In this document: piece by piece, positions 24,787 to 41,620 of the stretch | Layout: every line of letters starts with the position of its first letter | Position numbering within the stretch: the first letter of the stretch is position 1 | NCBI GenBank assembly: GCA_026388765.1 | Contig: JAPLJC010000121.1 | Location: forward strand, 1 to 48,180 | DNA from: Deltaproteobacteria bacterium | Lineage (GTDB): Bacteria > Desulfobacterota > Desulfobaccia > Desulfobaccales > 0-14-0-80-60-11 | Reading direction: 5' to 3' | Length of the DNA: 48,180 nt | Notes under the pieces: model-generated | The model's input: the letters and a program-made list of their open reading frames with translations, nothing else | What the model was told of the DNA's origin: nothing | The model's database searches: none | Position numbers and translations under genes: made by a program

Positions 24787-26244
24787 CTAATAAAGATTCC
24801 AGGTAAACTGCGCCTGAAATAACGACCGGTTAAACTGCCACTCCGGTATATTGGCGCGCGTGTTGGCATAACCGTAACCGAACCAAAAGGCAAGGCGCTC
24901 ATTCAGAGGTTTTTTGACTAGCAGCTGGAGACAATAATTATCGTTTAGTTGCCTTCTGCCGGACCATTCGTCAGTGTTGTCGAAATGCGCCTGCCCGTAT
25001 TCGAAATTTAGCCACCCGGTGAGATCCCAGGGGAGAAAAACCGTGGCATTCGCCGTGGCCCCATACAGGTGGGAAGCCCAAAAAAGACCTTGAGCCAGAT
25101 CACGGTCATAGAAAATCCCCAGCCGCATAATGCCGCGCGCCGGCAAGAGAAACGCCTGGAAAAGATCTATGCGGTGATCCCAACCAGACTGATGATATTC
25201 GTCGCCCCGGGAATACCAAAAGTTCTTATCTCTGGCTCGGTACGTCGCTTCCCCTTTTAAGAAGCTCGTTTCAGGCCAATCAATGGTTAGGCCAGGAATA
25301 TTAAAGGTGCTAAATGGTTTGCCGTTGCCATACCAGGTACGGTCATAGGCGAAGAAAGGCTTGAAGACGAACGGCCCAAGGCGCCAATTAATGAAGGCCT
25401 CCCCTTTGAGGTTTAAAAAGTCCCAGGACTGGAGGTAAAGGTGCCCGCTATCAGAGCCATTAAAACGCAATCCCAGGTTAAAGTCATCGCGTATGAGCGG
25501 GTAATACTCGGTGCGGTCGCCCAAGATACCCCCCCAATCCGTGTACTTGGGTGACTTGCGTGCCGGAGTAGCAAGGTAATAAGGTCTTGTATGTAACTCC
25601 ACATTACTGTCATAGTTAAGGCCTACGGCAACCTCCTGGCGAAACTTCTTGATCTGGACGTCCACCGGGGTAAGGAGAATTTCCTCATAAGGCTTGAAAT
25701 AAGAGGCGAATTCAGGGCTAAGATGATAGCCTTCCTGCAATTCTTTAAGGCCTTGTTGGGGGTGGTTCATCTGTATCTCGCAAAGGCCTAGATAATAACT
25801 TATCAAGCCCTTTTCCGGGTCTTGCTCTTTGGCGTTCCGCAAATATTTCTCAGCTTGCTGATATTCCCCTAAGCAATATTTTGTGATGCCAAGATAAAGA
25901 AGGCCATCTTTGATATGGGAATCTAGAGAAATGGCGACCTGAAAACTGTGGAGGGCTTCCTGATATTTTTTCAGGGCCAGGTAACAAAGCCCCAATGCAA
26001 GCCTGATATCGGCGCGCTCTGGTCCTATCGCTGCTGCCTGGGATAGCTGGTCGCTTGCCTCTTGGTAACTTCCGAGCGCATATGCTTGGCTGCCACGGGC
26101 ATAAAGCATTTCAGCCGGGAGAGAACTCGAGGCCCGGCTTATGGTGGCCGAAAAAAATATGGCCACAACTAGATAAAATGAAGCTATGGAAAGAAACCAG
26201 GACTTGGTAATATTGTCCCTTCGCTTGACAACCCTTATATTCAT
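24787..26244 (-). CDS. TPR protein with C-terminal outer-membrane beta-barrel, copy 1
   Basis: 485 residues. An N-terminal signal/anchor (about 15-40) precedes four to five TPRs (about 45-195, for example AYALGSYQEASDQLSQAAAIGP). A region of alternating aromatic beta-strands (about 205-485) ends in LYand begins with VGLNYDSNVEL, typical of an outer-membrane barrel with a terminal aromatic. The layout resembles Slam/DUF560-like proteins and polysaccharide-export porins, but I cannot assign either. GAGGGGG lies seven bases before the ATG. Co-transcribed with the FecR gene. Base composition is less GC-rich than the housekeeping neighbours. Confidence 0.78.
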   Translation of the reverse strand: MNIRVVKRRDNITKSWFLSIASFYLVVAIFFSATISRASSSLPAEMLYARGSQAYALGSYQEASDQLSQAAAIGPERADIRLALGLCYLALKKYQEALHSFQVAISLDSHIKDGLLYLGITKYCLGEYQQAEKYLRNAKEQDPEKGLISYYLGLCEIQMNHPQQGLKELQEGYHLSPEFASYFKPYEEILLTPVDVQIKKFRQEVAVGLNYDSNVELHTRPYYLATPARKSPKYTDWGGILGDRTEYYPLIRDDFNLGLRFNGSDSGHLYLQSWDFLNLKGEAFINWRLGPFVFKPFFAYDRTWYGNGKPFSTFNIPGLTIDWPETSFLKGEATYRARDKNFWYSRGDEYHQSGWDHRIDLFQAFLLPARGIMRLGIFYDRDLAQGLFWASHLYGATANATVFLPWDLTGWLNFEYGQAHFDNTDEWSGRRQLNDNYCLQLLVKKPLNERLAFWFGYGYANTRANIPEWQFNRSLFQAQFTWNLY

Positions 26245-26721
26245 TCAATGCCCCCTCTGCCTGATGCCATTTTTGGAGCCCTGAATTGGGTTCTTCTAGC
26301 TTCAATCAAGATTAGGCGATAGCCTTTGGCTATACCATTAAAAATTGGTATTGGGGACTTCCCTCCCGAGCTTGACTCCAAGAAGGTTCCTCTTTTTACA
26401 GCCAGAGAGTCTTGAGGGAGCATGATAGCACAAATTTCGCAGATAAAGTATTTTGTCCTAAAAGGAAGTTTACTACACTCTCAGGTCCAGATGCCTTACT
26501 GCTTTGGACCTTAAGGACCCCCAGGCCAGCACCGGTCGCTAATGTGAGCCTGAGGTGGAGGTCGCATGGATATACCACCTCCGGTAACAGATAACTTGCC
26601 CTTATCAGTAGCTTCCTAAGCAAACCAATAACTTATCGATATGAACTGGATAGAGAGAATGGAGTCTTGGGTTAGCGGACTTCCGGAATCCAGGGGAGGA
26701 GATAGCAAATTAACCTGAAGT
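26245..26721. other. Gene-free upstream region of the TPR-barrel/FecR operon
   Basis: About 480 bases without a credible gene. It should contain the promoter of the minus-strand operon, but I found no unambiguous -35/-10 pair. The short ORFs listed on both strands lack any recognisable feature. Confidence 0.4.
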
Positions 26722-26722
26722 C

Positions 26723-26762
26723 AAAAAAAGAAAGGGCGGGAAACCCCGCCCTTTCTTTTTTT
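26723..26762. terminator. Strong bidirectional Rho-independent terminator
   Basis: An 18-bp perfect stem (AAAGGGCGGG core extended by A/T tracts) around an AAAC loop, with T-runs on either strand. It is the duplicated version of the dnaK terminator and is more symmetrical than the original. Confidence 0.85.
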
Positions 26763-26788
26763 ATAAATTAAAGCTGAACCAACCAGTC

Positions 26789-26876
26789 TTATTTAACTTC
26801 CTCGAACTCCGCCTCCACCACCTCTTCTTCGGGCTTTTTGGGCTTCTCTTCCTGGCCCGGAACCGCGCCCGCCGCC
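26789..26876 (-). pseudogene. Orphan 3' fragment of dnaK
   Basis: In frame on the minus strand this reads ...[19 protein letters not shown] and on through EEVK to a TAA stop, identical to the last 20 residues of the intact DnaK at 29658-31574. There is no start or upstream coding sequence; homology stops at the GC-rich linker. It is a remnant of a duplication, not a gene. Confidence 0.88.
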
Positions 26877-26924
26877 CGCGGGACAGTGCAGAAAATTGCC
26901 ACAGGATTATGAGGCTATCTAATC

Positions 26925-26988
26925 AGCCCGAATTGGGTGACAAAGTTCGTAAATTTATGTTATATTGTTGTCGTCAGACAATTCGGCT
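26925..26988 (+). promoter_or_regulatory. Promoter inside an imperfect inverted repeat
   Basis: GTGACA (26937-26942), a 17-bp AT-rich spacer and TTATAT (26960-26965) form a plausible sigma-70 promoter for the delta-60-repeat gene. The flanks AGCCCGAATTGGGTGAC (26925-26941) and GTCAGACAATTCGGCT (26973-26988) are near-exact inverse copies, overlapping the -35 and the expected start site as an operator would. Confidence 0.5.
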
Positions 26989-27085
26989 ATAAAATTGAGG
27001 ATATTGGTCTGGGTTAAACTCGGCGAAAAGTGATAACCATTCTTTAATGGCCTGGCTATCAACCAAAGATTTTGTCGGAGGGACC

Positions 27086-29479
27086 ATGAAGCCTCATCAT
27101 TTACTCGTTGCCGGCCTGACGGAAGGATCCCTAAGGAAAGCCCACCTCCCTCTCCGGCGCCGGGCCTGCCGCGACCTGGCCGTTATCCTGGTGATCTGCT
27201 GCCTTTTCCTGGCCTTACCCGCTGCCGCCGCAGCCGGTGACGCCGACTGGGACCACACCTTTAATTCCGGCCTCGTTGAGAAGATCTGCGTAATCCGGGG
27301 CAAAGTCGATTACACCGACGGCCGGTTTCTCCTCTATGGTTTCTTCTCTACCCTGAGCGCAGGTATCTGGCGCAATTCTATCGCCCGCCTGAATGCCGAC
27401 GGCACCCCGGATCCCTCCTTCAATGCCCCAGTCAATGGCGAGGTGCGCCGCGTCTATTTACTGGACAGCGGCCAGATTTTAATCGCCGGAAAATTCACCA
27501 TCGGCACTTTTATTAATTTCGCCCGCTTGAACGCCGACGGCTCGGTGGACACCTCCTTCCCCAAGGTCTTCAACTCTTCCGGGGCAGTAAATGATATCGC
27601 GGTGCAAGCGGACGGCAAGATCCTGCTGGGGGGCTATTCCATGGCCGTCCCGGGAAGCACCGCCAACACCTTTCATCTGCTCCGTTTGAACAGCGACGGC
27701 ACCCTGGATGACAGCTATCCCCGGCGCTCGGCTCCCGGAGGCTACGTCTCTTCCGTCGGAATACTCAGCGGCGACGCGGCGCGCCTCTTCGGGACCCTGC
27801 CCCGCGCCGGTACCGCGCACGTGGATTACCAGCTGGACCTGGCCAGCACCGGTGTGGTGCAGACACACCTCGGGGATGAGACGGTGGACGGCCCCATCCT
27901 GAGCATGGGCCAGCAGAGCAACGGCCAGTGGCTGATCTCCGGGCAGTTCCAGCATGTCTTGGGCGTGGCCAGGAGCCGCGTCGCCCGCTTCAACCTGGAT
28001 ATGACCCTGGACCCTAACTTTAATATCGGCGCCGGCGCCAACGCTTCGGTGTCGCAACTCACGGTCCAGGCGGACGACAAGATTGTCCTGGCTGGCAATT
28101 TTGATGCTTTTAACGGCACTGCCTGCGGCTATCTGGTGCGTCTCAATACCGACGGCTCGGTGGACTCCACCTTCGCCACCGGGACCGGGGCCGATTACCG
28201 CATTGTGCGCCTGACCGCCGGCGGCAGCGGTTGGCTGATCTACGGATATTTCCGCAATTATAACGGCTCTTCCCGGTACGGTATTGCCAGCCTGGACGCC
28301 AACGGCGGCCTGACCGGTAGCAACGTGTATGTCTTTAGTTACTATCTTGGGACGGTCTATGCCCTGGCGGCCCAAAACGACGGCAAGATCCTGGTGGGCG
28401 GCGACTTTACCGGAGTGAGCGCCAAGTACCGGGGCGGCATTGCCCGGCTCAACCCTGACGGCAGCCTGGACACCTCGTTCAAAGGCGGGCTGGACGGCTA
28501 CGTGGAAAGCATCGCCATCCAGGACGACGGCAAAATCCTGCTGGCCGGCAACTTCGGCGCGGCCCAAGATTACGCCCGCACCAGCCTGGCCCGGCTGAAC
28601 GCTGACGGCTCCTTGGATACCACTTTTAACCCTCTGGTGGTAAAAGGGGACGGGTCCGTCAGCGACCTGCGCCAGGTCGTGCGCTTGTCAGGCGGGCAGC
28701 CCGTGGTCGCCGGGGATTTCGCCCAGGTCTGCGGCGCTAACCGCACCATAGTGGTCCGCCTGAACGGGGACGGTTCCCTGGACGCCGCCTTCAACGCCCA
28801 GCTCAACGCCACCGGGGTCAGCAATATCATGGGCTACCGGGTGGCGATGGCGGGCGGCAATTATGTGGTGTATGGCTCATTGTTACTGAACGGCACCTCC
28901 CGGGGGTTCTTGACCCGCTTCACCAACACCGGCGCCCTGGACACCACCTTTGGCCCCACCGCCCCGCCCACCCCGGTGGCCAATGTTATTATTCTGGACA
29001 GCGGCTCTAGTCCGACCCCGGCGGCCGACATGTTCCTCCAGAACGACGGCAAGATCGTGGTGGGCGGCAGCTTTTCCCATATTATTGACAGCTCCGGCAG
29101 CCCTCCCGCCAGATGGTCCATCGTCCGGTTCTCGGGCAGCGGCTTCCTGGATGACACCTTTTTTTACCATGGCTCATCCAATACCATCAACGCCATGGCC
29201 TTGCAGTTTAACGGCAAGATCCTTGTCGGCTCGGGGTCTCTGTTCCGTCTGTACCCCGACGGCAACCTGGACACCGCTCCATTCATGGCGGGACCGGTCT
29301 TCGCCATATTGCGCCAGGCCAGCGGCAAGAATATATTCGCCGGGAATCTCAAATATTACTTCTCCAGTCTCCAACAGAGTATCCCCCGCATCGGCACCCC
29401 GCCCCTTCCTAATGCGGGCGTGGCGGCGGGTATGCTGGGTCCTCTTTTGGAGGATAAGCCATATCCGTGGCCCTTTTAG
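27086..29479 (+). CDS. Secreted delta-60-repeat beta-propeller-like protein
   Basis: 797 residues from ATG 27086, behind GGAGGG; the track start 13 codons earlier has no site. A long N-terminal region (basic, then ICCLFLALPAAAAAG near 45-60) is a probable signal peptide. The body is about 12-13 tandem units of about 50 residues following the delta-60 pattern (QxDGKILxGGxF...xxRLNxDGSLDxxF), for example ARLNADGSVDTSF and ARLNPDGSLDTSF. Such proteins are extracellular and likely form beta-propellers. There is no obvious surface anchor; the C-terminus is GMLGPLLEDKPYPWPF. It lies between the two direct copies of the dnaK tail, which suggests insertion or rearrangement. Confidence 0.85.
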   Translation: MKPHHLLVAGLTEGSLRKAHLPLRRRACRDLAVILVICCLFLALPAAAAAGDADWDHTFNSGLVEKICVIRGKVDYTDGRFLLYGFFSTLSAGIWRNSIARLNADGTPDPSFNAPVNGEVRRVYLLDSGQILIAGKFTIGTFINFARLNADGSVDTSFPKVFNSSGAVNDIAVQADGKILLGGYSMAVPGSTANTFHLLRLNSDGTLDDSYPRRSAPGGYVSSVGILSGDAARLFGTLPRAGTAHVDYQLDLASTGVVQTHLGDETVDGPILSMGQQSNGQWLISGQFQHVLGVARSRVARFNLDMTLDPNFNIGAGANASVSQLTVQADDKIVLAGNFDAFNGTACGYLVRLNTDGSVDSTFATGTGADYRIVRLTAGGSGWLIYGYFRNYNGSSRYGIASLDANGGLTGSNVYVFSYYLGTVYALAAQNDGKILVGGDFTGVSAKYRGGIARLNPDGSLDTSFKGGLDGYVESIAIQDDGKILLAGNFGAAQDYARTSLARLNADGSLDTTFNPLVVKGDGSVSDLRQVVRLSGGQPVVAGDFAQVCGANRTIVVRLNGDGSLDAAFNAQLNATGVSNIMGYRVAMAGGNYVVYGSLLLNGTSRGFLTRFTNTGALDTTFGPTAPPTPVANVIILDSGSSPTPAADMFLQNDGKIVVGGSFSHIIDSSGSPPARWSIVRFSGSGFLDDTFFYHGSSNTINAMALQFNGKILVGSGSLFRLYPDGNLDTAPFMAGPVFAILRQASGKNIFAGNLKYYFSSLQQSIPRIGTPPLPNAGVAAGMLGPLLEDKPYPWPF

Positions 29480-29590
29480 CTATCACCAGGGCCCGACCAT
29501 CGTGGAAATAGTCCATAGCCGGTTATTGATCCCTGCTTCCACCGCTGGCATTACCCGCAGCATCTGGTGAATCCGCACAGAGTTGGAAGC

Positions 29591-29746
29591 CAAAAAAAGA
29601 AAGGGCGGGAAACCCCGCCCTTCTATTTTTATATAATTAAAACTGAACCAACCAGTCTTACTTAACTTCCTCGAACTCCGCCTCCACCACCTCTTCTTCG
29701 GGCTTTTTGGGCTTCTCTTCGTGGCCCGGGCCCGGGCCCGCCGCCC
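29591..29746. repeat. Direct repeat of the dnaK 3' end and terminator (copy B, native)
   Basis: The native dnaK tail and terminator, matched by copy A at 26722-26876. Divergence is concentrated in the AT tracts of the terminator and in the GPGPG-like linker codons. Confidence 0.88.
29592..29630. terminator. dnaK / delta-60 gene terminator
   Basis: GGGCGGG-AAAC-CCCGCCC hairpin with an A-tract before and a T-rich stretch after, so it can serve dnaK on the minus strand and the delta-60 gene on the plus strand. Confidence 0.8.
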
Positions 29747-31574
29747 CGGCCCCGGGGCCGCCGGCCGCGCCGGTCTTGGCGTACATCTGCTCCGCCAGCT
29801 TGTGGGAGGCCTTCATCAGCTCATCCGTATGCTGCTTGATGACGGCGACGTCGGTGCCTTCGATGGCGGTCTTCAGAGGCGTGATTTTGGCCTCGATGTC
29901 CGCCTTGGTGGCCTCGTCCACCTTGTCCCCCAGGTCCGCCAGGGTCTTCTGGGTGGTGTAGATCAGGGAGTCGGCCTGGTTGCGGGCCTCGGCCAGCTCC
30001 TTCTTGCGATGGTCTTCCTCGGCGTGGAGTTGGGCCTCTTTCACCAGGTTGTCGATCTCATCCTTGTTGAGACCGCTGGGAGCGGTGATGCGGATGGACT
30101 GCTCCTGCCCGGTGCCCAGATCCTTGGCGGCCACGTGGACGATGCCGTTGGCGTCGATGTCGAAAGACACCTCGACCTGAGGGATGCCGCGGGGGGCCGG
30201 CGGGATGCCGAAGAGCTCGAAGCGCCCCAGGGTCTTGTTGCCATCGGCCATCTCCCGCTCGCCCTGGAGCACGTGGATGGTCACCGCGGTCTGGTTGTCG
30301 GCCGCGGTGGAGAATACCTGGCTCTTGCGGGTGGGGATGGTGGTGTTGCGCTCGATGATCTTGGTGAAGACCCCGCCCAGGGTTTCGATGCCCAGGGACA
30401 GGGGGGTGACGTCCAGCAGCAGGATGTCCTTGACCTCGCCCTTAAGCACCCCGGCCTGGATGGCGGCGCCCACGGCCACCACTTCGTCGGGATTGACCCC
30501 CTTATGGGGCTCCTTGTCGAAGATCTGCCGGACCTTCTCCTGCACCCGGGGCATACGGGTCATGCCGCCCACCAGGATGACTTCGTCGATATCCTTGGTG
30601 GTGGCCTTGGCGTCCCGCAGGGCACTGAGGCAGGGGCCTTCGCAGCGGTCGATGAGCTCCGCCACCAGGGACTCCATCTTGGCCCGGGTCAGTTTGATCA
30701 GCAGGTGCTTGGGGCCGGAGGCGTCGGCGGTGATAAAGGGCAGGTTGACGTCGGTCTCCAGGGCGGTGGAGAGCTCGCACTTGGCCTTCTCCCCGGCTTC
30801 CTTCAGGCGCTGCAAGGCCATGCGGTCCTTCCTCAGGTCGATGCCCTGCTCCCGGAGGAACTCGTCGGCCAGGAAATCCATCAGGCGCTGATCGAAGTCG
30901 TCGCCCCCCAGGTGCGTGTCGCCGTTAGTCGATTTTACTTCAAAGACCCCTTCGCCCAGCTCCAGGATGGAGATGTCGAAGGTGCCGCCACCCAGGTCGA
31001 AGACCGCCACCCGTTCTTCCTTCTTCTTCTCCAGGCCGTAGGCCATGGAGGCGGCGGTGGGTTCGTTGATGATCCTGAGGACGTTCAAGCCGGCGATGGT
31101 TCCCGCGTCTTTGGTGGCCTGGCGCTGGGCGTCGTTGAAATAGGCCGGCACGGTGATCACCGCCTCGGTCACCTTCTCACCCAGATACTCCTCCGCGGTC
31201 TGCTTCATCTTGGTGAGAATCATGGCCGAGATTTCGGCGGGCGAGTAAGTGCGGCCCCGGATTTCCACGTGAGCGTCACCGTTGGCGGCCTGGACGATCT
31301 TGTAGGGCAGGATCTTGGTATCCCGCTGCACTTCCGGATCGCTGTATTTGCGGCCGATGAGGCGTTTGATGGAAAAGACGGTGTTCAAAGGATTGGTGAT
31401 GGCCTGGCGTTTGGCGATCTGGCCCACCAGGCGTTCCCCGGTCTCGGTAAAGGCCACCACCGAGGGGGTGGTGCGAGCTCCTTCAACATTGGCGATGACC
31501 TTAGGCTCTCCACCTTCCATAATGGCAACACATGAGTTGGTGGTGCCTAAATCAATGCCTATGAGTTTTGACAT
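29658..31574 (-). CDS. dnaK: Molecular chaperone DnaK (Hsp70)
   Basis: 638 residues. ATPase-domain signatures are IDLGTTNS (residues 6-13), [14 protein letters not shown] (near 195) and [14 protein letters not shown] (near 335). A substrate-binding domain (from about 390, [14 protein letters not shown]) and a helical lid follow, then a Gly/Ala/Pro linker and the acidic tail [13 protein letters not shown] that docks co-chaperones. Its ATG immediately follows the grpE stop with no gap, so translation is coupled, and GAGGAAAG lies within the grpE end. It folds proteins with DnaJ and GrpE under HrcA/CIRCE control. No dnaJ follows; the delta-60 gene occupies that position. Confidence 0.98.
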
Positions 31575-32189
31575 TTAACTTTCCTCCTGAGTAGTCGAAT
31601 CGTCTTGACTTGCTGTTTCTTGGGTATTGCGAGCCACTACCACCATGGCCGGCCGTAGCAGCCGGTTCTGGAGCAGGTAGCCTTTTTGCATTTCCTTGAG
31701 CACGGTGCAATCTGGGACTTCCGGCGCCATTTCCTGCAGCACCGCGTTGTGAAAATTCGGGTCGAATTGTTGACCCACCGCCACGATGGGGGTTACCCCA
31801 AACCGGGCCAAGGCCTTCAAGAAGCCCTGGTGCACCAGGTCAATCCCTTCCAGGAAGGGGGCCGCGGTTCCCGCTTGACGGCCGTGGTCCAGAGCCAGCT
31901 CCAGGTTGTCCACCACCGGCAGCAGCTCTTTGATCAGGTTTTCGTTGGCAAATTGCAACAGATCGGCCTTCTCTCGCTCCAACCGCTTCTTCAAGTTTTC
32001 CATTTCCGCGGCGAGCCTCAGGGCGCGATCGTAATTCTCCTGGGCTTCTTTGGTCTTCTCTGCCAACTGTTGCTGCAATTGAGCCATATCGGCCGGCAGC
32101 CGCGGGGCTGCGGCGGCTTCGGGCGCTAGGGGATCCTCCGGGCCGGCGGCCTTCGGTTGCTCCACTTTATGGTGTCTGGCTGAAGTCAT
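31575..32189 (-). CDS. grpE: Nucleotide exchange factor GrpE
   Basis: 204 residues. A low-complexity N-terminus (about 1-35) precedes a long coiled coil (about 38-90, AQLQQQLAEKTKEAQENYDRALRLAAEMENLKKR) and the C-terminal beta-wing domain (about 130-190, FDPNFHNAVLQ...). It releases ADP from DnaK. It is the middle gene of hrcA-grpE-dnaK; its stop codon abuts the dnaK ATG. Confidence 0.96.
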   Translation of the reverse strand: MTSARHHKVEQPKAAGPEDPLAPEAAAAPRLPADMAQLQQQLAEKTKEAQENYDRALRLAAEMENLKKRLEREKADLLQFANENLIKELLPVVDNLELALDHGRQAGTAAPFLEGIDLVHQGFLKALARFGVTPIVAVGQQFDPNFHNAVLQEMAPEVPDCTVLKEMQKGYLLQNRLLRPAMVVVARNTQETASQDDSTTQEES

Positions 32190-32269
32190 AAATCCATGTC
32201 TCCTTCAACTTCCCCCAAAACCGAGACCCCAGACGAGGTCGGCAATTTTTCTCAAGCGGGGCGCGGGCC

Positions 32270-33316
32270 TCAACTCTGCCGCTGATTGAGCAGGTTGGTG
32301 ACCATGGCGGCAGTATAGCGCACGATGGGAACCAGCCGGGCATAATCCATGCGCATGGGGCCGATGATCCCCAGGCAACCCAAGGGAGAGTGCAAGGCGC
32401 CGTAAGACGAGGCCACCAGGGAAAGCTGCATTTCGGGAAAGTGTTCGCTCGGGCTGATGATGATCTGCACTCCCTGGGCCGCCAGGGTTCGATCCAGCAG
32501 GGTGATCAGCCGGTGTTTCTCTTCAAAGGCCTGGAACATAGTGCGCATCTTGGCCACGTCCTCGGCAAATTCCCGGTAGTCCAGGATCTGGCTGGTGCCC
32601 TCGATGTAGAGCTCTTCTTCCTCGTCCCGCTCGTCGCTCTGGAGCGCCTGACGGCTGAGACTCAAGGCCTGGGAAATCATCTGATCAAAAAGGTTCTTTT
32701 CTTCCTCCATCTGGGCCAGGATCTTCTGCCGGCTCTCCCCCAGGGTGAGGTTCTGGCATAGCTCATTGAGATAGTGGCTGAACCGGTCCAGCAGGTCCTG
32801 GGAATAGCGCGCATCACCCCGCACGAACCGGGTCTGCACCTGGTCATCCTGGGAGACCAGGATCGTCAGGATCCCGTCGCTGCTCAGGCCGATGAACTGG
32901 ACGTGTTTCAGCCGCATCCCCTGGGGCCTGGGGGCCAAGACCAGGGCCGGATGGCCGCTCACCGCGGAGAGCACCCGGGAAGCCTGGCGGAACAGGTCCT
33001 GGGGTTCGCTGGAGGATGGCGAGAAAGCCGCCTGAATCTTCTGCTGCACCGATGCCCCTAACTCCTGGACGGGCAGGATGTGGTCCACATAATAGCGGAA
33101 CCCCTTGGGGGTGGGTAATCTCCCGGCGGAGGTGTGCGGCTGTTGCACGTAACCCCGCTCCTCCAGGTCCATCATCAGGTTGCGGATGCTGGCCGAAGAG
33201 AGGTTGAGGCCGGAAATCTTGGCCACCATCCGGGAACCCACCGGCTCGCCGGTGACAATATACTGGGCCACCACGGTTTTCAATACCCGGGTGTCGCGCT
33301 CGCCTAAGAGTTCCAT
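32270..33316 (-). CDS. hrcA: Heat-inducible transcription repressor HrcA
   Basis: The repressor of class I heat-shock genes; binds CIRCE as a dimer and needs GroE for folding. The winged-helix N-terminus is recognisable (LGERDTRVLKTVVAQYIVTGEPVGSR, then NLSSASIRNLMMDLEERGYV and PHTSAGRLPTPKGFRYYVD). A GAF-like core and insert domain follow to the C-terminus. Several in-frame ATGs (33334, 33328, 33316) follow a TTG at 33340 and none has a strong SD. I favour 33316 (348 residues) because HrcA normally starts a few residues before L-x-x-R. It heads the chaperone operon and represses itself through the CIRCE at 33399-33425. Confidence 0.93.
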   Translation of the reverse strand: MELLGERDTRVLKTVVAQYIVTGEPVGSRMVAKISGLNLSSASIRNLMMDLEERGYVQQPHTSAGRLPTPKGFRYYVDHILPVQELGASVQQKIQAAFSPSSSEPQDLFRQASRVLSAVSGHPALVLAPRPQGMRLKHVQFIGLSSDGILTILVSQDDQVQTRFVRGDARYSQDLLDRFSHYLNELCQNLTLGESRQKILAQMEEEKNLFDQMISQALSLSRQALQSDERDEEEELYIEGTSQILDYREFAEDVAKMRTMFQAFEEKHRLITLLDRTLAAQGVQIIISPSEHFPEMQLSLVASSYGALHSPLGCLGIIGPMRMDYARLVPIVRYTAAMVTNLLNQRQS

Positions 33317-33376
33317 TACCAATTCCATGGCCATTACCAAATATGAAAGTTAATAATCTAACCTGGATTTGTCAAG

Positions 33377-33520: not shown

Positions 33521-33546
33521 TCAGGTTGCGGGGGGCGAATGTAGCC

Positions 33547-33562: not shown

Positions 33563-33603
33563 CTTGTTCATATTCACAAGGCAACTTCACCTATCAGGCA
33601 TTC

Positions 33604-33906
33604 TCAAGCCGCGGTCTCCACTGGCTTAATCTTTAGATATTCCTCACCATGAATCTGCAAGGTGTCCCATAAGTCGAGGTCGGTTTGCAGGCCGAGCCAG
33701 AACTCCGGGGTGGTCTCGAAAAGCCTCGCCAGGCGAAAGGCGGTGTCAGGGGTGATCCCCCGCTTGCCGCGCAAGATCTCGCTCAAACGCACGCGAGTGA
33801 TCCCCAGGGCCGCTGCCAGCGCTTTCTGGCTGAGCCCCAAAGGCTCTAAGAATTCATGCCGCAGGATTTCTCCCGGCGGGGTGGGACGCCGATTCCGGGG
33901 TAGCAT
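33604..33906 (-). CDS. higA: HigA-family antitoxin (HTH-XRE)
   Basis: 100 residues. N-terminal TPPGEILRHEFLEPLGLSQ is the hallmark of HigA (VapI-like). The helix-turn-helix covers about 25-65 (LSQKALAAALGITRVRLSEILRGKRGIT), followed by a helix with TPEFWLGLQTDLDLW. It should neutralise HigB and repress the operon. It starts 14 bases after the higB stop, in the toxin-first order typical of higBA. Confidence 0.93.
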   Translation of the reverse strand: MLPRNRRPTPPGEILRHEFLEPLGLSQKALAAALGITRVRLSEILRGKRGITPDTAFRLARLFETTPEFWLGLQTDLDLWDTLQIHGEEYLKIKPVETAA

Positions 33907-33920
33907 GTTTTCTCCTCAAT

Positions 33921-34202
33921 CTAATGATATTGCACCAGTTCCAGATCAAAAACTTTGCCGTCTGCAAAACTAAAACATAATCTCCAGGCTCCGCTGACTG
34001 CAATGGCCCATTGTCCCTCCCGGTCGCCATGCAAAGCATGAAGGTGGTTGGAGGGGGGCGCTTTTAAGTCTTTGAGGGCCTCGGCCCGATTAACCATATC
34101 CATCTTCCGCAGCAGGCGGGCTTCAAGCTCCGAAGGCACCCGCTTATGCTTGCCATTGTGCCAGAACTCTTCTAACCATGGCTGGGAGAAAGTTTTGATC
34201 AT
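33921..34202 (-). CDS. higB: HigB-family toxin (RelE/ParE superfamily)
   Basis: 93 residues from ATG 34202 (MIKTF, the usual start of the family); the track's start at 34259 lies upstream of the operator. It has the HigB sequence skeleton: ELEARLLRKMDMVNRAEALKDL, PPSNHLHALHGDREGQWAIAV and WRLCFSFADGKVFDLELVQYH. The C-terminal His and Arg/Trp residues are those used for ribosome-dependent mRNA cleavage in the family. It is the first gene of the toxin-antitoxin operon, controlled by the palindrome just upstream. Confidence 0.93.
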   Translation of the reverse strand: MIKTFSQPWLEEFWHNGKHKRVPSELEARLLRKMDMVNRAEALKDLKAPPSNHLHALHGDREGQWAIAVSGAWRLCFSFADGKVFDLELVQYH

Positions 34203-34205
34203 ATT

Positions 34206-34222
34206 GTAACGATTATCGTTAC
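34206..34222. promoter_or_regulatory. higBA operator palindrome
   Basis: GTAACGATTATCGTTAC is a 17-nt palindrome with one unpaired centre base, 3 bases before the higB ATG. On the minus strand TTGCAA and TACAAT are spaced 17 bp across it, and a GATAAT lies within it. Either -10 would leave almost no leader, so transcription may be nearly leaderless. HigA is the likely ligand. Confidence 0.65.
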
Positions 34223-34298
34223 TCGTTGCAAGATTTTCCGTAGGGGGCGGCCTACGCATCGCCTCATCATTTTGCCGGCTGGCCCCCGCCCCGGGAAT

Positions 34299-35471
34299 TT
34301 ACCGGGGATATCGGATCGCCAGGCTGAGGCCAAGTCCGATTACGGGCAGAATCATGATGGCTTTCAAAGCCATGGGAATGCCGAAGCTATCGGCGACTAC
34401 TCCCAGCAGGGTGACGCCCAGGCCGCCGACCCCGATGGCAAATCCTACCATGAGACCGGAGGCGATACCCAGGTTTCTTGGCAAGAGCCTCTGGGCCATG
34501 ACGATGGTGACGGTAAAGGATGAGATGAGAGCCATGCCGACCACGGCGAGCACCACGAACAACCAGGGTCCCCGGACTGCCAGGATCAACGGGGTCAAGA
34601 CGCTGGCCGCCACCAGGGAACAAACCAGAAAGGGCTTGTGGCCAAAACGGTCGGCCAGGATGGAACCGATGATGGTCCCGGCCACGCCCCCGAGAAGAAA
34701 GGTGGAGACCAGTTTCCCGGAGTACATGGGGTCCCCTTTAAGATAATCGATGTAATAAAACGGGATAAAAGTCATGAGCCCCATTTGGGTCCACGACCTC
34801 GTGACCACCGTGGCGATGGTCAAAAAGAGCGGCAGATAGGCATTGCGGCCGGCCGCGGCCGCCTCTTCCCGGGCCTGGGGCCGCTCCCGGTGGGCGCGCT
34901 GGATGGCAGTCCATTGAAACCGGAACAACGCCAAAAACAAGAGGGAGAAGATCACCATGACCGGCAAAACTTCGAAGCCGAGTTGGGTCACGATGGTAAT
35001 GGCGATCATCGGCCCCAGGGCAAAGCCCAGGTTCCCCCCGACGGAGAAGACCGACATCCCGGTGGCCAGGTTTTTGCCGGTGAAATAGTGCGCCGTTTTA
35101 TAACCTTCCGGATGATAGGCCGCCACCCCGAGCCCGCTGATCATTACCAGCATGAGCACGAAGCCGTAACGGTTCGGGGCGGACAACAGCGACAGGCCTA
35201 CCCCGGCGGCGAGGCAGCCCAGGGGCAGCAGGAGCACTTTCTCTCTCTTGTCGGAGAAATAGCCGAAAACCGGCTGCATGATGGACGAAGCAAAAGTGGC
35301 GGCCATCAGAATGGCCCCGGCCAGGGCATAAGACAGCGACAGCCTGGTCTTTAAGAAGGGCAGCAGGGCCGGCAGCGCCCCCTGATAGATATCGGTGACC
35401 AGGTGGCCGAAGGACAGCACCAGCAGAACCTTCAGGTTCATTTTCCGTTCGGGTAAGTCTAATATGGCCAT
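34299..35471 (-). CDS. MFS transporter, fosmidomycin-resistance (Fsr)-like
   Basis: 390 residues with about 12 transmembrane helices. It starts with NLKVLLVLSFGHLVTDIYQGALPALLPF, the typical beginning of Fsr-type drug/proton antiporters, and has the MFS loop GYFSDKREK (about 70-78) and YHPEGYKTAHYF near 125. The related E. coli Fsr exports fosmidomycin; physiological substrates are unknown. Start is uncertain: ATG 35441 (MNLKVLL) is the alternative with a shorter N-terminus. No regulator adjoins it. The preceding higBA pair is probably independent. Confidence 0.85.
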   Translation of the reverse strand: MAILDLPERKMNLKVLLVLSFGHLVTDIYQGALPALLPFLKTRLSLSYALAGAILMAATFASSIMQPVFGYFSDKREKVLLLPLGCLAAGVGLSLLSAPNRYGFVLMLVMISGLGVAAYHPEGYKTAHYFTGKNLATGMSVFSVGGNLGFALGPMIAITIVTQLGFEVLPVMVIFSLLFLALFRFQWTAIQRAHRERPQAREEAAAAGRNAYLPLFLTIATVVTRSWTQMGLMTFIPFYYIDYLKGDPMYSGKLVSTFLLGGVAGTIIGSILADRFGHKPFLVCSLVAASVLTPLILAVRGPWLFVVLAVVGMALISSFTVTIVMAQRLLPRNLGIASGLMVGFAIGVGGLGVTLLGVVADSFGIPMALKAIMILPVIGLGLSLAIRYPR

Positions 35472-35533
35472 GATTTTGCGGAAGAGGTTCCTTCCTTAAA
35501 ATTGCGGTGCGGGCGGGACCCAAAGAGAAGAAT

Positions 35534-35550
35534 GGTGCGTCGGACGCACC
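35534..35550. repeat. Short palindrome GGTGCGTCGGACGCACC
   Basis: A 17-nt palindrome between the MFS gene and the small membrane protein. REP-like; seen once in this form. Confidence 0.5.
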
Positions 35551-35562
35551 CTACGGAACCTT

Positions 35563-35778
35563 TTACCGAGTGCCTTCGAACCATAAGGCCAGGATTAAGA
35601 GACCGGAGGCGGTGATTAGAAAATATCCCCATATTTTCAAACTTCGGGACATCTTCTGGGCCGCGGCTTGACCATAGGATTTTTCCAGCTTGGCATAGTA
35701 TTGTTTGCTCCGGGAAAGGAAGAGACAAATGAGGCCGGCCGCCAGGGAAACCAGGGCGAAAATAAAATAATTCAGCAT
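35563..35778 (-). CDS. Small two-helix membrane protein
   Basis: 71 residues from ATG 35778 (AAGGAG upstream); the track start at 35901 has no site. Two hydrophobic helices (residues 3-20, FIFALVSLAAGLICLFL; 48-66, YFLITASGLLILALW) flank a basic loop (SRSKQYYAKLEKSYGQAAAQKMSRS). No family recognised. It is an isolated gene between phoU and the MFS gene. Confidence 0.6.
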   Translation of the reverse strand: MLNYFIFALVSLAAGLICLFLSRSKQYYAKLEKSYGQAAAQKMSRSLKIWGYFLITASGLLILALWFEGTR

Positions 35779-35966
35779 CAGTGGCTCCTTCTCTTGGTCC
35801 CAGGGAACTGATTCAGCCTGGAAAAGACTTATTGGCGGCAGCTTTCCGGCGCGTGGTCCCGAGGCGGCGGGCCAGAAGCCCGCCCTATCACTTTTCATCA
35901 CTATTGGCGCGGGGAACGCACCTTACGCTTTTCCCTCTTCGCCCTTTCCCCTTTTACCCCATCCTT

Positions 35967-36656
35967 TTATCCCTGGCAGCGATGCCGGATGCTTTCCCCC
36001 TCCACCATGAAGACCACCTGTTCGGCGATGTTGGTGGCGTGGTCGCCCACCCGCTCGAGGTTGCGCACGATGTTGATCTGGCTCAGCCCCGCCGGGATGG
36101 CAGTGGGGTCACCGGTCATCTCCACCAGCAAATTCTCGATGATGGCCCGGTCCAGGGCGTCCACTTCATCATCCTCTTGGCAGATTTCCCGGGCCAGGCG
36201 GGTATCCTGGGCGAGAAAGGCCTGCAAGCTCCGGCGGACCATTTGCCGGACGTCCTCAGCCATGCGGGGCAGGTCGAAATGGACCGGTTTGGCCGGTAGC
36301 TGCCGGAGATTCAGGACTTCTTCGGCGATGTTGGTGGCTGAGTCACCGATACGTTCCAACTCGGCGCTGATGTGATCCACCGCCATCAGCACCCTGAGAT
36401 CGATGGCCACCGGCTGGAACAAGGCGATCAGGCGCACGCATTCGCTGTCGATGGCCTCTTCCAGCTCGTTGACCGCCTTGTCCCCGGTGATGACCTGGCG
36501 GGCCAGATCCGGGTCCCGGTGCAACAGCGCGGTGATGCTGCGCTCGATGGCGCGCTCCGCCGCCTGGGCCAGCTCCAGCAGCCTGGCCTTCAGGTCTCCC
36601 AGTTCCCGGTGGAATTTGTCGCGGGCCGCCGGGGCGCCTTTGCTCTCTTCAGGCAT
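35967..36656 (-). CDS. phoU: Phosphate transport system regulator PhoU
   Basis: 229 residues from ATG 36656, eight bases after GAGG; the track start is a TTG four codons earlier. Two PhoU repeats (about 15-105 and 120-215) contain the metal-binding pattern ELEEAIDSECVRLIALFQPVA and DEVDALDRAIIENLL, and the helices RIGDSATNIAEEV and RVGDHATNIAEQVVFM. It modulates PhoR/PhoB signalling and PstSCAB in other bacteria, but none of these genes is in the window. A dyad GAGTGCTA...TAGCATTC lies upstream at 36676-36698. Confidence 0.94.
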   Translation of the reverse strand: MPEESKGAPAARDKFHRELGDLKARLLELAQAAERAIERSITALLHRDPDLARQVITGDKAVNELEEAIDSECVRLIALFQPVAIDLRVLMAVDHISAELERIGDSATNIAEEVLNLRQLPAKPVHFDLPRMAEDVRQMVRRSLQAFLAQDTRLAREICQEDDEVDALDRAIIENLLVEMTGDPTAIPAGLSQINIVRNLERVGDHATNIAEQVVFMVEGESIRHRCQG

Positions 36657-36871
36657 GGGGCACCTCAAATCCGAATGGAGTGCTAATACCTATAGCATTC
36701 TTTTAGAATTGATGGCCAAGTAAATTTTTTAATCATCCGACCGGTAACCGGCAAGGTTGAATCTGGAAATATTTTTATTTCACAATAAAAATACTTTTAA
36801 CATTTTTTGGCATTGTGCTAAGGTTTAGCCCCATAAGGGAGAGTTCAAATTCATAATTTCGGGGAATTAAC

Positions 36872-38401
36872 GTGGGGATTAAGGCAATTACAAAGAACTT
36901 GATATTGGTATTGGCGCTGCTGGGGGCCGTCCTCCTGAGCACCCCAGCCCAGGCAATCAGCCCCTACGATGATGTCCTGGTGCAGAAGGCGGCCAAAGAC
37001 CTGCAACAGGAAAATTACGACGAAGCCCTGGCGGGACTGACCGAGGCCTGGCAGAAAGGAACCCACACCCCGGAAAAGGCCTTCCTGTTGGCTCAGACCT
37101 ACCGGCAAATGCTCAATTACCCCAAGGCCAAGGAATACTTGGAAGAAACCCTGCGCCTGAATCCGAACCTGTCCCCGGCCCAGCTCATGCTGGCCGACAC
37201 CCTGCTGGCCCTGGATCGACCCAAGGAGGCCCTGCCCATCTTGCAGTCCCTCGAAGCCTCAGGCTTTGAGCCGGGTCAGGTGGCCTTCCTCAGGGGCATG
37301 ATTGAGACTAAGGAAGGGAGATACAACGAGGCACTGGATTATTTCCGCAAGGCTCAGGAAGATCCCCGGCTGGCCCAGGAAGCCAAGTTCCAGGCCAGCC
37401 TGGCCCTGGCGGCCCTGAACCGCCTGAAGGAAGCCCGCAAGACCATGGAAGAGGCCATCTCCATCAACACCCAGTCCCAGACCGCGGATTTCGCCAATCG
37501 CTATATGGGGATCCTGGAAAAACGCCTCGATGAAATCAAACCCTTCCGCGCCACGGTCACCGCGGGCTTTGATTACGATTCCAACGTCACCCTGCAACCG
37601 GGAGGCGCCGGGGCTGCCACCCAGGTTTCCGGCCACGGGGACGCGGTCTTCGCCCAATCCGCTACTTTTGAATACAACTTACATGCCCAAGGGCCTTTCA
37701 GTCTTCTGACGCAATATTCTTATTTCCAGAACTTCCATCCGACCCTTGGCACCTTCGACATCATGAGCCATTACGTGGGAGCTATTCCCACTTATACTTA
37801 CAAATCCGGCCGTGTCTGGCTGCCTGCAAGCTACAACTATGTGGACGTCGCCTCGGACAAGTACTTTACCGGCTTTCTCGCCAATCCCACCTGGCTGCAC
37901 CTGTTTACTGAAAACGTCGGGGTGGAAACGACGGCCCGGTTTGCCCGGAGATACTACTGGACTCCCCTCAGCTTCGCACAGGACGACCGTTCCGGCAAAG
38001 ACGTCGGCGGCAGTCTGGGCGCCTACTATTTTATCCAGAACCAGAAGGGCTATCTCCAGGCCCGTCTCAGTTTTGATCACGATGCCACCACCGGCAGCAA
38101 CTGGGACAGCGACAGCTACCGCCTGCTCCTCGCCGCCCTTTATCCCATCACCGATAAATTGAAGGCCAACGCCTTTGTGGATCTGTCCGTGCAACCCTAT
38201 GAACACCTGTTCTTCAACGGGGCCGGCCTCGAAAACAAGCGCTTCGACAAGATCCTCGTCACCGGCTTGCAGTTCACCTACCAGTTGCCCAAAGGCTTTG
38301 ACTTCAACGTCCACTACTTCTTTACCCGGGACAATTCCAACACCGCCCTCTACACCTATTCCCGCCACATCGTCGGCTGCCAGATAGGTTACCGCTATTG
38401 A
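36872..38401 (+). CDS. TPR protein with C-terminal outer-membrane beta-barrel, copy 2
   Basis: 509 residues from GTG 36872 (GGGGA upstream). Signal peptide with cleavage after AQA (about 31). TPR-like repeats fill about 36-225 (for example AAKDLQQENYDEALAGLTEAW and TYRQMLNYPKAKEYLEETLRLNP). A beta-barrel-like region starts at about 227 with TAGFDYDSNVTLQPG and ends in aromatic strands (HIVGCQIGYRY). It matches copy 1 at 24787-26244 in layout and in the YDSNV motif. A FecR gene follows in both places. It is likely an outer-membrane protein with periplasmic TPRs; substrate or role unknown. Confidence 0.8.
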   Translation: MGIKAITKNLILVLALLGAVLLSTPAQAISPYDDVLVQKAAKDLQQENYDEALAGLTEAWQKGTHTPEKAFLLAQTYRQMLNYPKAKEYLEETLRLNPNLSPAQLMLADTLLALDRPKEALPILQSLEASGFEPGQVAFLRGMIETKEGRYNEALDYFRKAQEDPRLAQEAKFQASLALAALNRLKEARKTMEEAISINTQSQTADFANRYMGILEKRLDEIKPFRATVTAGFDYDSNVTLQPGGAGAATQVSGHGDAVFAQSATFEYNLHAQGPFSLLTQYSYFQNFHPTLGTFDIMSHYVGAIPTYTYKSGRVWLPASYNYVDVASDKYFTGFLANPTWLHLFTENVGVETTARFARRYYWTPLSFAQDDRSGKDVGGSLGAYYFIQNQKGYLQARLSFDHDATTGSNWDSDSYRLLLAALYPITDKLKANAFVDLSVQPYEHLFFNGAGLENKRFDKILVTGLQFTYQLPKGFDFNVHYFFTRDNSNTALYTYSRHIVGCQIGYRY

Positions 38402-38635
38402 AAAATACCGCCAACCTGCTAATCAGCTCAAAAAGTCAGGCAGGCCTTAGACTTCCGCAAATAAATGGGGTTCGGCGTTTCCCAGGTAATAAGGTTATCG
38501 AACCGGACCCGAAATTTTAAAGATGTGGCTAAATGGGTAAATATTTGCGATACTGAATACCATCCATAATTTTTTTTACCTTAACCGCTCTGGATTTGCT
38601 CTCTTGACCGCGGTTGGCAACGTGAGGAGATGGGT

Positions 38636-39610
<975 letters not shown>

Positions 39611-39722
39611 TCCGGACCCTGGACGAATGAGACGAGCAAGGGAAGAGAGGGGACCAGGAAATTGAGTCATGATTATGATTTTTCCTCATTAAATCCTTGT
39701 CCCTTTTGTACCTTTTTAAGGT

Positions 39723-39728
39723 TATAAT
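39723..39728 (+). promoter_or_regulatory. Consensus -10 hexamer upstream of the VWA gene
   Basis: TATAAT exactly, with only a weak -35 (TCCCTT at 17 bp). It would give a leader of about 155 bases before the ATG at 39893. The leader contains a tandem CTTGACGAC repeat and a purine-rich stretch; I could not match it to a riboswitch. Confidence 0.45.
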
Positions 39729-39892
39729 GAAAAACATCTGGACATTCCGATTTCGGTCGCTCACTTCCCCTACTTGACGACCTTGACGACCGGCGAATTT
39801 GGGAGGCAGACAGGCGCAACGCAAGGTGGCGCAAGCCGTCACGAGTTTCGGCACCCGACATCTGATTAACCTTGTGATACCAGGAGGATAGG

Positions 39893-41620
39893 ATGAAAAG
39901 CCTGGCTTCAAAAATTTACGGCGCCTCTTTGGCGGTTGTGTTTTTTCTCCTGGCTCTGACGGGCCCGGCGCTTTTTGCCTATTTATTTCTGCTTTCCCCA
40001 GTAAATGCCCTGGCCGATAATGTGGTGCCACCGACTTACTCCACCACTTTGACGGTGGGACACAGCGTCACCATTGCCAAAACCGTAACCATCACCGCGG
40101 GCACCCCCACTTCCGCCAAGGTTGACGTCTTTTTCCTCGCCGACACCACCGGCAGCATGGGCGGCGCGATTCAAAGCGTTAGAGACGGAGCTGCCGCCAT
40201 TATGGCAGCCACCTCCGGACTGGGAGATGTGGCCTACGGCGTGGGTGAGTATAAGGACGTGGGCGACCCTTTTGTTTATCGGCTGAACCAGGACATCACT
40301 AAGGTTACTGCTGAGGTTCAAACCGGGATAAACGCCTGGGTGGCAGGCGGCGGTGGGGATACTCCCGAGGCCGACATCTATGGACTTTATGAAGCGGCCA
40401 ATACCACTTCCTGGCGCCCTGGTTCCACCCGCATCCTCATCTGGTTCGGGGATGCCTGGAGCCATGACCCCGCCGGACCATCCCCCGGAGTTACCGAGGC
40501 GCAAGCCACTGCTGCCCTGATAGCCCAAACCATCAAGGTCTTGGCCCTCGATTTGGGCCAATTGGATGAGTTAGGTCAGGCCACAAGGATTGCCAACGCC
40601 ACCGGTGGCCAATATTATATCGGCATAGACCCCACTACGATTGTCGATGTTATCAAGAGTGCCATTATCTCCTCTTTTGCCACTTACAGCAACGTCAGTC
40701 TAGGCACGGCGTCGGTGCCGACCGGCCTTGCGGTCACCATTGCCCCACCGTCGATTACGGGCGAATTTGACCGCAGCATCGATCGCATCTTTAACTTTAG
40801 CGTGACTTTTACCGCAGTCTCCCCCGGTTCTTATAGTTTTCCCATCCCCGTCCTGGTAGATGGGGGGACGATGGCTACCGAACAAGATAATATTCAGGTT
40901 GAGCGGCCGGTTATTGGGCTGGTCTTTCCCTTGCCGCGCTATACCCCCTTCAACGCCCCGGTGAGCGCGGTGATGGACAACTCCGTGCTTGATCGGACCC
41001 CCATTCAATTTTACGTCCCCGGCGACACGATCACGGCATTTAACGGTGAAAACGGAGAAAAGCAATTCGGGGTTATGTATCTGGATCCCTACGGCCTATA
41101 CTGGCCGGCTTACAAAAACAGCGGCGGCACCGGCTTCTTCCCTCCCTCCGGCGCGGGGGTACGTCCGCTCAACTACGTCACCGGCCCGTGGCTTTCCTAT
41201 GCCGGCAATCCCGGTTACAACTACCAGGTGCCCGAGGGCACCCCGGTGTTGGCCACCGCCGACGGCAAGCTTTACCTAGTCGGTCCCAACCACGTCGATC
41301 CCGTCAACGGCGGGGATTACGACTATTATCACAGTTCCTTCATCGACCATCAAAACGGCTGGTTCTCCTGGTATCTCTATGCCCCGTTGAACCCCGCCAT
41401 CCTGGCGCAGATCAGCCTAAACGGTTTTGCCCAGGTGACCCAGGGGCAAATCATCGGCAAGACCATTGCTGATCACCTGCACTTCGAGGTGCGCCATAAC
41501 GGTATCGACAATGCCAACGTGGTGGACCCTTACAAGCTTGGACTTTGGCTGCCCAGCAGGGTAAATCCTGCGCCCCAGATGCTCTTGCTCTTAGATGAAT
41601 CAAACCTTCCTCCTCAATGA
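39893..41620 (+). CDS. Exported VWA-domain protein with M23-like C-terminus
   Basis: 575 residues; CCAGGAGGATAGG precedes the ATG. A signal peptide or N-terminal anchor (about 12-42) is followed by a von Willebrand factor A domain (about 75-265) with the MIDAS motif DTTGS (D84) and later GGGGDTPEADIYG. A beta-sandwich-like region (about 270-350) leads to a C-terminal domain (about 380-560). There PEGTPVLATADG and ADHLHFEVR match M23/lysostaphin peptidases (HxH zinc motif), but the first His/Asp pair of the family is not seen (NPGYNYQ instead), so catalytic activity is doubtful. It may be the third gene of the TPR-barrel/FecR locus, though about 280 bases and a possible promoter separate it. 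Confidence 0.78.
   Translation: MKSLASKIYGASLAVVFFLLALTGPALFAYLFLLSPVNALADNVVPPTYSTTLTVGHSVTIAKTVTITAGTPTSAKVDVFFLADTTGSMGGAIQSVRDGAAAIMAATSGLGDVAYGVGEYKDVGDPFVYRLNQDITKVTAEVQTGINAWVAGGGGDTPEADIYGLYEAANTTSWRPGSTRILIWFGDAWSHDPAGPSPGVTEAQATAALIAQTIKVLALDLGQLDELGQATRIANATGGQYYIGIDPTTIVDVIKSAIISSFATYSNVSLGTASVPTGLAVTIAPPSITGEFDRSIDRIFNFSVTFTAVSPGSYSFPIPVLVDGGTMATEQDNIQVERPVIGLVFPLPRYTPFNAPVSAVMDNSVLDRTPIQFYVPGDTITAFNGENGEKQFGVMYLDPYGLYWPAYKNSGGTGFFPPSGAGVRPLNYVTGPWLSYAGNPGYNYQVPEGTPVLATADGKLYLVGPNHVDPVNGGDYDYYHSSFIDHQNGWFSWYLYAPLNPAILAQISLNGFAQVTQGQIIGKTIADHLHFEVRHNGIDNANVVDPYKLGLWLPSRVNPAPQMLLLLDESNLPPQ

What the first reader, a model, noticed from the sequence alone, without database searches (positions are those of the whole stretch)
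24787..41620. A TPR/outer-membrane-barrel + exported FecR gene pair occurs twice, once followed by a VWA/M23-like protein
Seen: 24787-26244 with 23952-24773 (minus) and 36872-38401 with 38636-39610 (plus) have the same gene order, signal peptides, TPR block, a barrel that opens with [LF][ND]YDSNV, and FecR proteins with proline-rich tails. Known: FecR proteins normally sit next to ECF sigma factors and TonB receptors; neither is present. Inference: a two-component envelope system, perhaps for surface polymer export or sensing, in which the TPR-barrel is the pore and the exported FecR domain a partner. The second copy adds a VWA protein with a degenerate peptidase fold.
Basis: partly seen in the sequence, partly recalled or inferred. 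Interest (0 to 1): 0.75.

Follow-up and report, generated by a model that had tools for sequence, protein, structure and literature searches.

The report
Outer-membrane TPR pore with FecR partner
Two neighbouring genes, one for an outer-membrane pore with a periplasmic helper region and one for an exported FecR-domain protein, form a widely conserved but undescribed pair that probably displays proteins on the cell surface, as known Slam (type 11) secretion and LapA-type adhesin anchoring do.

Summary
The two pairs are not a recent duplication: their TPR-barrels fall into separate deep clades. Pairing is conserved far beyond chance. FecR lies just downstream on the same strand in 10/10 orthologues of copy 1, 22/30 of copy 2 in the order, at least 33/38 loci from a genome-wide scan that reaches Omnitrophota, Nitrospirota and Desulfuromonadia, and at least 47/67 in a phylum sample.

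The copy-2 barrel is modelled at pLDDT 90 with 14 strands behind TPRs. Orthologues and homologues exceed the cut-off of Pfam SlipAM (Slam/DUF560, type 11 secretion), although the window proteins themselves do not. The FecR partners are Sec-exported, often carry passengers of up to about 2,000 aa, and their FecR domain resembles the LapA retention module and a solved antifreeze-adhesin domain.

Best reading: a T11SS-like pore that displays or anchors a FecR-retained surface protein. Polysaccharide export and CHASE2-linked sensing remain rivals. Secretion is untested. I call it a new variant of a known kind.

The parts
24787..26244 (-). Copy 1 TPR + outer-membrane barrel protein (485 aa), signal peptide, barrel opens with LNYDSNV
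   Evidence: orthologues in 10 other genomes of the order, all with FecR next door
23952..24773 (-). Copy 1 exported FecR-domain protein (273 aa), Pro-rich tail; 13 bp after the barrel gene
   Evidence: (PF04773 E=0.005, below cut-off); orthologous position holds above-cut-off FecR genes
36872..38401 (+). Copy 2 TPR + outer-membrane barrel protein (509 aa, GTG start)
   Evidence: AF2 model pLDDT 90.2; conserved in 26 of 29 genomes of the order
36968..37534 (+). TPR region of copy 2 (residues 33-221)
37544..38398 (+). 14-stranded C-terminal barrel of copy 2 (residues 225-509); orthologues match PF04575 SlipAM above cut-off
37574..37588 (+). YDSNV motif opening the first barrel strand
   Evidence: D-S-N-V invariant in 14 order members; N invariant, D and V nearly so, in 34 members from several phyla
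38630..39610 (+). Copy 2 exported FecR-domain protein (326 aa)
   Evidence: PF04773 2e-14
38813..39109 (+). FecR domain of copy 2
   Evidence: family resembles LapA retention module and PDB 5ix9 over its first ~75 residues
39527..39607 (+). Proline-rich C-terminal tail of FecR2
39893..41620 (+). Exported VWA + M23-like protein (575 aa), candidate third component or cargo
   Evidence: all full-size relatives in the order lie beside copy-2 pairs
40880..41572 (+). Degenerate M23-like C-terminal domain shared with proteins having other N-terminal domains
   Evidence: PF01551 3e-9; zinc ligands lost, alignment
41640..41664 (+). Terminator-like hairpin (11 pairs, 8 G-C) with T-rich tail ending the copy 2 gene set
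   Evidence: pattern match only

Best explanation
Each pair is a small outer-membrane display unit. The TPR-barrel protein sits in the outer membrane as a 14-stranded Slam/type-11-like pore or assembly factor with its TPR arm in the periplasm. The downstream gene makes its Sec-exported partner. The N-terminal FecR beta-domain of that partner stays in the periplasm, docked on or near the TPR arm, as a retention or docking module. Its Pro-rich linker, and in many relatives a long beta-rich passenger, is led through or presented at the outer membrane. In the window the FecR tails are short, so the exported VWA/pseudo-M23 protein, and not FecR itself, may be the surface-exposed cargo of copy 2. 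Shown: conserved pairing, export signals (by eye), barrel model, SlipAM membership of orthologues, long passengers in relatives, FecR-TPR-barrel fusion. Inferred: that the barrel moves protein, that FecR stays periplasmic, that P0005 is cargo.
For: Pairing: 10/10 and 22/30 in the order; at least 33/38 across phyla; at least 47/67 in the phylum. Barrel: AF2 pLDDT 90.2 with 14 strands after TPR helices. PF04575 SlipAM over its gathering score across the full barrel in L086, L098 and L100. An independent PF04575 search of the order picked copy-2 orthologues as five of its seven hits. TPR_Slam matches weakly in 30/34. DUF560 barrels are described as 14-stranded with TPRs, unlike 16-stranded PgaA (PMC8406197). 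Partner: passengers up to 2016 aa, with a conserved beta-rich C-terminal region across phyla that AF2 folds as about eight C-terminal strands. FecR domain: modelled as an anti-sigma FecR fold; retention_LapA model in 21/24 and PDB 5ix9 at E=2.5e-7. Retention modules sit in the periplasm and hold adhesins in outer-membrane pores (PMC13090378). Fusion: FecR-TPR-barrel in one ~1,210-aa protein, a topology that puts FecR on the periplasmic side. P0005-type proteins occur in the order only beside copy-2 pairs, with swapped N-termini. VWA/DUF1194 proteins also accompany marine T11SS loci (PMC12282271).
Against: The window barrels themselves give no SlipAM hit. The closest solved folds are BcsC (cellulose export) and OmpG, not a secretion Slam, though I saw no Slam structure among the hits. 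C-terminal pieces also match BBP2_2, DUF2860 and EpsL. The passenger's resemblance to T11SS cargo is not significant (TbpB, E=0.007, prob 0.14), and no TbpBBD Pfam hit was found. The retention similarity covers only the first ~75 residues. LapG-type protease was not found in 29 genomes and the cleavage motif is rare. Some copy-2 barrels have no FecR beside them. The window FecR proteins lack long passengers.
Confidence: 0.45

Rival explanations
1. Polysaccharide export: the TPR-barrel is a BcsC/PgaA/EpsL-like exopolysaccharide pore and the FecR protein a periplasmic accessory or polymer-binding subunit.
For: Best fold match is BcsC, TPR + barrel; BBP2_2 in 20/34 members; weak EpsL and PEP-CTERM barrel matches; some PgaA also falls in PF04575 (PMC8406197).
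Against: 14 strands, not 16; SlipAM covers the whole barrel while EpsL matches only its ends; no polymer synthase is among the recurrent neighbours identified or beside the window pairs; does not explain 600-2000-aa FecR passengers.
Confidence: 0.17
2. Envelope sensor: the TPR-barrel and FecR protein detect something at the outer membrane and relay it to an inner-membrane CHASE2 cyclase, as FecR/LysM plus CHASE2 kinase may do in the Burkholderia biofilm operon.
For: CHASE2 cyclases within about 7 kb in 12 of 41 loci and beside 8 of 17 long FecR genes of the fusion type; FecR+LysM and CHASE2 kinase share a biofilm operon in Burkholderia (PMC5192318).
Against: No CHASE2 gene in this window; most loci lack one nearby; orientation varies; long passengers look like displayed proteins.
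Confidence: 0.2
3. Positional habit without shared function: FecR-domain proteins are common and merely sit beside an outer-membrane porin.
For: Eight of 30 copy-2 barrels in the order have no FecR beside them; other FecR genes stand alone.
Against: Adjacency, order and strand are kept across several phyla and in two separate barrel clades; FecR, TPR and barrel are fused in one protein elsewhere.
Confidence: 0.1
4. Canonical FecR anti-sigma regulator with a TonB-dependent receptor.
For: The FecR domain itself; fold match to anti-sigma FecR structures.
Against: Cleavable-looking N-terminal signal and no cytoplasmic anti-sigma region; no sigma factor or TonB receptor among the window proteins scanned.
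Confidence: 0.03

Closest known systems
Type 11 secretion system outer-membrane proteins (Slam / DUF560 / SlipAM, PF04575)
   Same: Signal peptide, periplasmic TPR arm, 14-stranded barrel; orthologues exceed the Pfam cut-off; VWA-type proteins near some T11SS loci (PMC8406197, PMC12282271).
   Different: Window barrels are below detection; partner is a FecR protein, which neither T11SS paper mentions; no TbpBBD-type cargo and no TonB receptor nearby; found in phyla outside the published Proteobacteria survey.
LapA / ice-binding adhesin retention modules (with TolC-type or type Vb pores)
   Same: FecR-family beta-domain at the N-terminus followed by linker and, in many relatives, long beta-rich sequence; 21/24 members match retention_LapA; PDB 5ix9 hit.
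   Different: Sec signal rather than type 1 secretion, essentially no RTX motifs (1 in 73), no LapG protease found, LapG motif rare; similarity limited to ~75 residues; pore is a TPR-SlipAM barrel.
BcsC / PgaA / PelB and EpsL-type polysaccharide export barrels
   Same: TPR + barrel layout; BcsC is the top fold match; EpsL matches at barrel ends.
   Different: 14 strands; no polymer synthase genes seen; protein-type partner.
Burkholderia BiofilmReg operon (FecR-LysM protein + CHASE2 histidine kinase)
   Same: Exported sigma-less FecR protein linked to a CHASE2 sensor (PMC5192318).
   Different: No TPR-barrel in that operon; CHASE2 absent next to the window pairs.

Membership tests
T11SS / Slam outer-membrane protein | PF04575 (SlipAM) barrel above curated cut-off | tested here: inconclusive
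   Window barrels: no hit. Orthologues at ~50% identity and homologues in other phyla: above cut-off.
T11SS / Slam outer-membrane protein | N-terminal periplasmic TPR domain with signal peptide | tested here: met
   TPR_Slam weak in 30/34
T11SS / Slam outer-membrane protein | 14-stranded barrel | tested here: met
   Copy 2 only, AF2 model pLDDT 90; copy 1 not modelled
T11SS / Slam outer-membrane protein | Neighbouring cargo with C-terminal eight-stranded barrel (TbpBBD or lipoprotein C) | tested here: inconclusive
   Not present in window; relatives' passengers end in ~8 strands but no Pfam or significant fold match
T11SS / Slam outer-membrane protein | Barrel-dependent secretion of cargo | not testable with these tools
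   needs experiment
LapA-type retained adhesin | N-terminal retention module | tested here: inconclusive
   NF033682 in 21/24 FecR proteins, best 4.8e-7, below the curated cut-off of 50 bits where scores were shown; PDB 5ix9 2.5e-7 over ~75 residues
LapA-type retained adhesin | LapG protease and [TAP]AAG cleavage site | tested here: not met
   PF06035 0/29; motif in 3/73 and not in the window proteins
LapA-type retained adhesin | RTX repeats / type 1 secretion signal | tested here: not met
   1 RTX-like motif in 73 proteins; Sec-type signals
FecR anti-sigma regulators | Neighbouring ECF sigma factor and TonB receptor | tested here: not met
Polysaccharide export TPR porins (BcsC, PgaA) | 16-stranded barrel beside polymer synthase genes | tested here: not met
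   14 strands; recurrent neighbours identified are FecR, CHASE2 cyclase, and VWA or propeller proteins
M23 peptidase (C-terminus of P0005) | Zinc ligands HxxxD and HxH, and catalytic Y-x-H | tested here: not met
   NxxxN, HLH kept, Y-x-H lost; PF01551 3e-9

The most novel reading that the evidence does not exclude
A widespread outer-membrane display system in which a Sec-exported protein is threaded through a dedicated TPR-SlipAM barrel and held there by an N-terminal FecR domain acting as a retention plug. That would be a third way of anchoring large adhesins, beside the LapA-TolC-type and type Vb ways, optionally coupled to CHASE2 cyclase signalling.
Probability: 0.28. Interest if true: 0.78.

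Novelty: new variant of a known kind. Interest (0 to 1): 0.58.

Why it matters
FecR-domain proteins without a sigma factor are numerous and unexplained. A conserved link to a Slam-like TPR pore gives them a concrete, testable role, extends type-11-like barrels to Desulfobacterota, Nitrospirota and Omnitrophota, and offers candidate surface proteins of bacteria that are mostly uncultured.

Tried and rejected
Sequence searches of the PDB with the TPR-barrels found only repeat proteins. Comparing the passenger with T11SS cargo gave only a non-significant TbpB match. The DUF5122 propeller gene beside copy 1 is not conserved beside other copy-1 pairs, so I leave it out of the system. A recent duplication of the pair was rejected by the tree. 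A LapG-controlled release model was rejected. Plasmid records hold no relative of copy 2. Literature searches found no paper describing the FecR + TPR-barrel pair, within an open-access library only. My greedy ORF picker hides some FecR genes behind antisense ORFs (e.g. L065, seen as G004:C34), so the counts are lower bounds. The FecR list was cut off, so 20 loci were fetched and rechecked.
Full report
OBSERVATION. The window is a whole contig of a 3.7-Mb draft genome, 93% complete. The order around it includes genomes matching deposited 'Desulfobacca' and 'Deltaproteobacteria' MAG contigs. All five genes exist as described. In copy 1 the barrel and FecR genes are 13 bp apart. In copy 2 the gaps are 228 and 282 bp with no terminator-like site on the plus strand, and a clear hairpin follows the VWA/M23 gene. 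Pfam finds TPRs in both large proteins, FecR in P0004 (2e-14) and only weakly in P0002 (0.005), and VWA plus M23 in P0005. The copies are homologous but distant. A tree puts copy-1-type and copy-2-type TPR-barrels in two clades separated by a long branch with 100/100 support, so the window holds two old systems, not a tandem duplication.

CO-OCCURRENCE. In the 29 genomes of the order, the copy-2 barrel is in 26, FecR domains in 29 at about 2.7 per genome, and the copy-1 barrel in 11. A FecR domain lies downstream on the same strand within 1.5 kb for 10/10 copy-1 relatives and 22/30 copy-2 matches. Three of the eight exceptions are shorter open frames without the TPR block; several of the others have unrelated genes downstream. 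A scan of one genome per species, using only barrel/TPR motifs, returned relatives in Omnitrophota, Nitrospirota, Thermodesulfobacteriota, Desulfuromonadia and Desulfomicrobiaceae. FecR follows within 600 bp in 33 of the 38 loci with enough downstream sequence, and one further case was hidden by my ORF picker. In 247 genomes of the phylum, 67 barrel matches gave 36 with FecR in the truncated list, plus 11 more on inspection.

WHAT THE BARREL IS. AF2 with 34 sequences gives pLDDT 90.2, about a dozen helices, then 14 strands from residue 225 to 508. The best solved folds are BcsC and 14-stranded OmpG. Barrels of Nitrospirota, Geobacter and Desulfomicrobiaceae members exceed the SlipAM/DUF560 gathering score along the whole domain. 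A blind PF04575 search of the order returned seven hits, five of them copy-2 orthologues. The window barrels themselves are too divergent to hit. DUF560 proteins are type 11 secretion pores with TPRs and 14 strands, and PgaA-like members were set apart as 16-stranded (PMC8406197). Partial matches to BBP2_2, DUF2860 and EpsL keep polymer export alive as a rival.

WHAT THE FecR PARTNER IS. Across relatives it has an export signal, a FecR domain, a Pro-rich stretch and then a tail that runs from short (window) to proteins of 600-2016 aa with beta-rich sequence; those scanned had no further convincing Pfam hit. The last ~400 residues are homologous across phyla. One member was modelled. The FecR part is confident and matches anti-sigma FecR structures, and the C-terminus forms about eight strands at moderate to high confidence, but without a significant match to T11SS cargo. 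A profile of 24 FecR domains matches PDB 5ix9, 'antifreeze protein', at 2.5e-7, and 21 of the members match the LapA retention-module family. From my own knowledge 5ix9 is the N-terminal region of the Marinomonas primoryensis ice-binding adhesin. Retention modules stay in the periplasm and hold adhesins in outer-membrane pores, both TolC-like and type Vb (PMC13090378). The similarity covers about 75 residues only. LapG protease and its cleavage motif are missing, so a Lap-like release switch is not supported.

FUSIONS AND NEIGHBOURS. In the same order 16 or more FecR hits lie in open frames of about 1,200-1,290 aa. The one read in full is FecR, then TPRs, then what looks like an outer-membrane barrel, in one chain. 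This ties the three parts together and places FecR on the TPR (periplasmic) side. CHASE2 cyclases lie near 8 of 17 such genes and near 12 of 41 two-gene loci. P0005-type proteins share a degenerate M23-like C-terminus under different N-termini: VWA, repeat domains, or propeller-like plus DUF11. In the order every full-size match lies beside a copy-2 pair. A variable front with a constant back is the logic of T11SS cargo, but here it is an inference.

MECHANISM. Most likely the barrel, with its TPR arm, presents the FecR partner and perhaps P0005 at the surface, with the FecR domain as periplasmic docking or retention module. The pairing and architecture are shown; transport, topology of FecR and cargo status are inferred. 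Confidence is about 0.85 that each pair is a functional unit, 0.6 that the barrel is T11SS-like, and 0.45 for the whole statement.

NOVELTY. I found no description of the pair in the open-access literature searched. The parts are known kinds, so this is a new variant of a known kind.

Noticed in passing
L113:597-4220 (Desulfobacca-like genome G022) and 16 similar FecR hits in the order: A ~1,210-aa protein joins FecR, TPRs and what looks like an outer-membrane barrel (weak TonB-receptor-like matches at the end) in one chain; 8 of 17 such genes have a CHASE2 cyclase within 6 kb.
   Followed up: partly
window 27047-29479 (+): Exported protein with 11 DUF5122 beta-propeller repeats, divergent from copy 1; not conserved beside other copy-1 pairs.
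   Followed up: partly
window 29658-33340 (-): dnaK-grpE-hrcA heat-shock genes lie between the two pairs; the same genes flank a copy-1 pair in L114/L115 and a copy-2 pair in L126.
   Followed up: partly
window 33604-34259 (-): HigB-like toxin with adjacent HTH antitoxin gene.
   Followed up: no
L038, L041, L042: Shorter proteins (331-361 aa) with a YDSNV-type barrel but no TPR block and no FecR neighbour.
   Followed up: no
L002 (G000:C234): Third FecR paralogue in the same genome (521 aa), closely related to P0004 but with a beta-rich C-terminal extension; near a contig end.
   Followed up: no
L003 / L012 (G000:C202): Stand-alone exported FecR protein downstream of a PQQ-type sugar-dehydrogenase-like gene (judged by eye).
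   Followed up: no
window 21524-23374 (-): TPR + periplasmic-binding protein of the LppC/penicillin-binding-protein-activator type next to copy 1; a related gene also lies near a copy-2 pair in L126.
   Followed up: no
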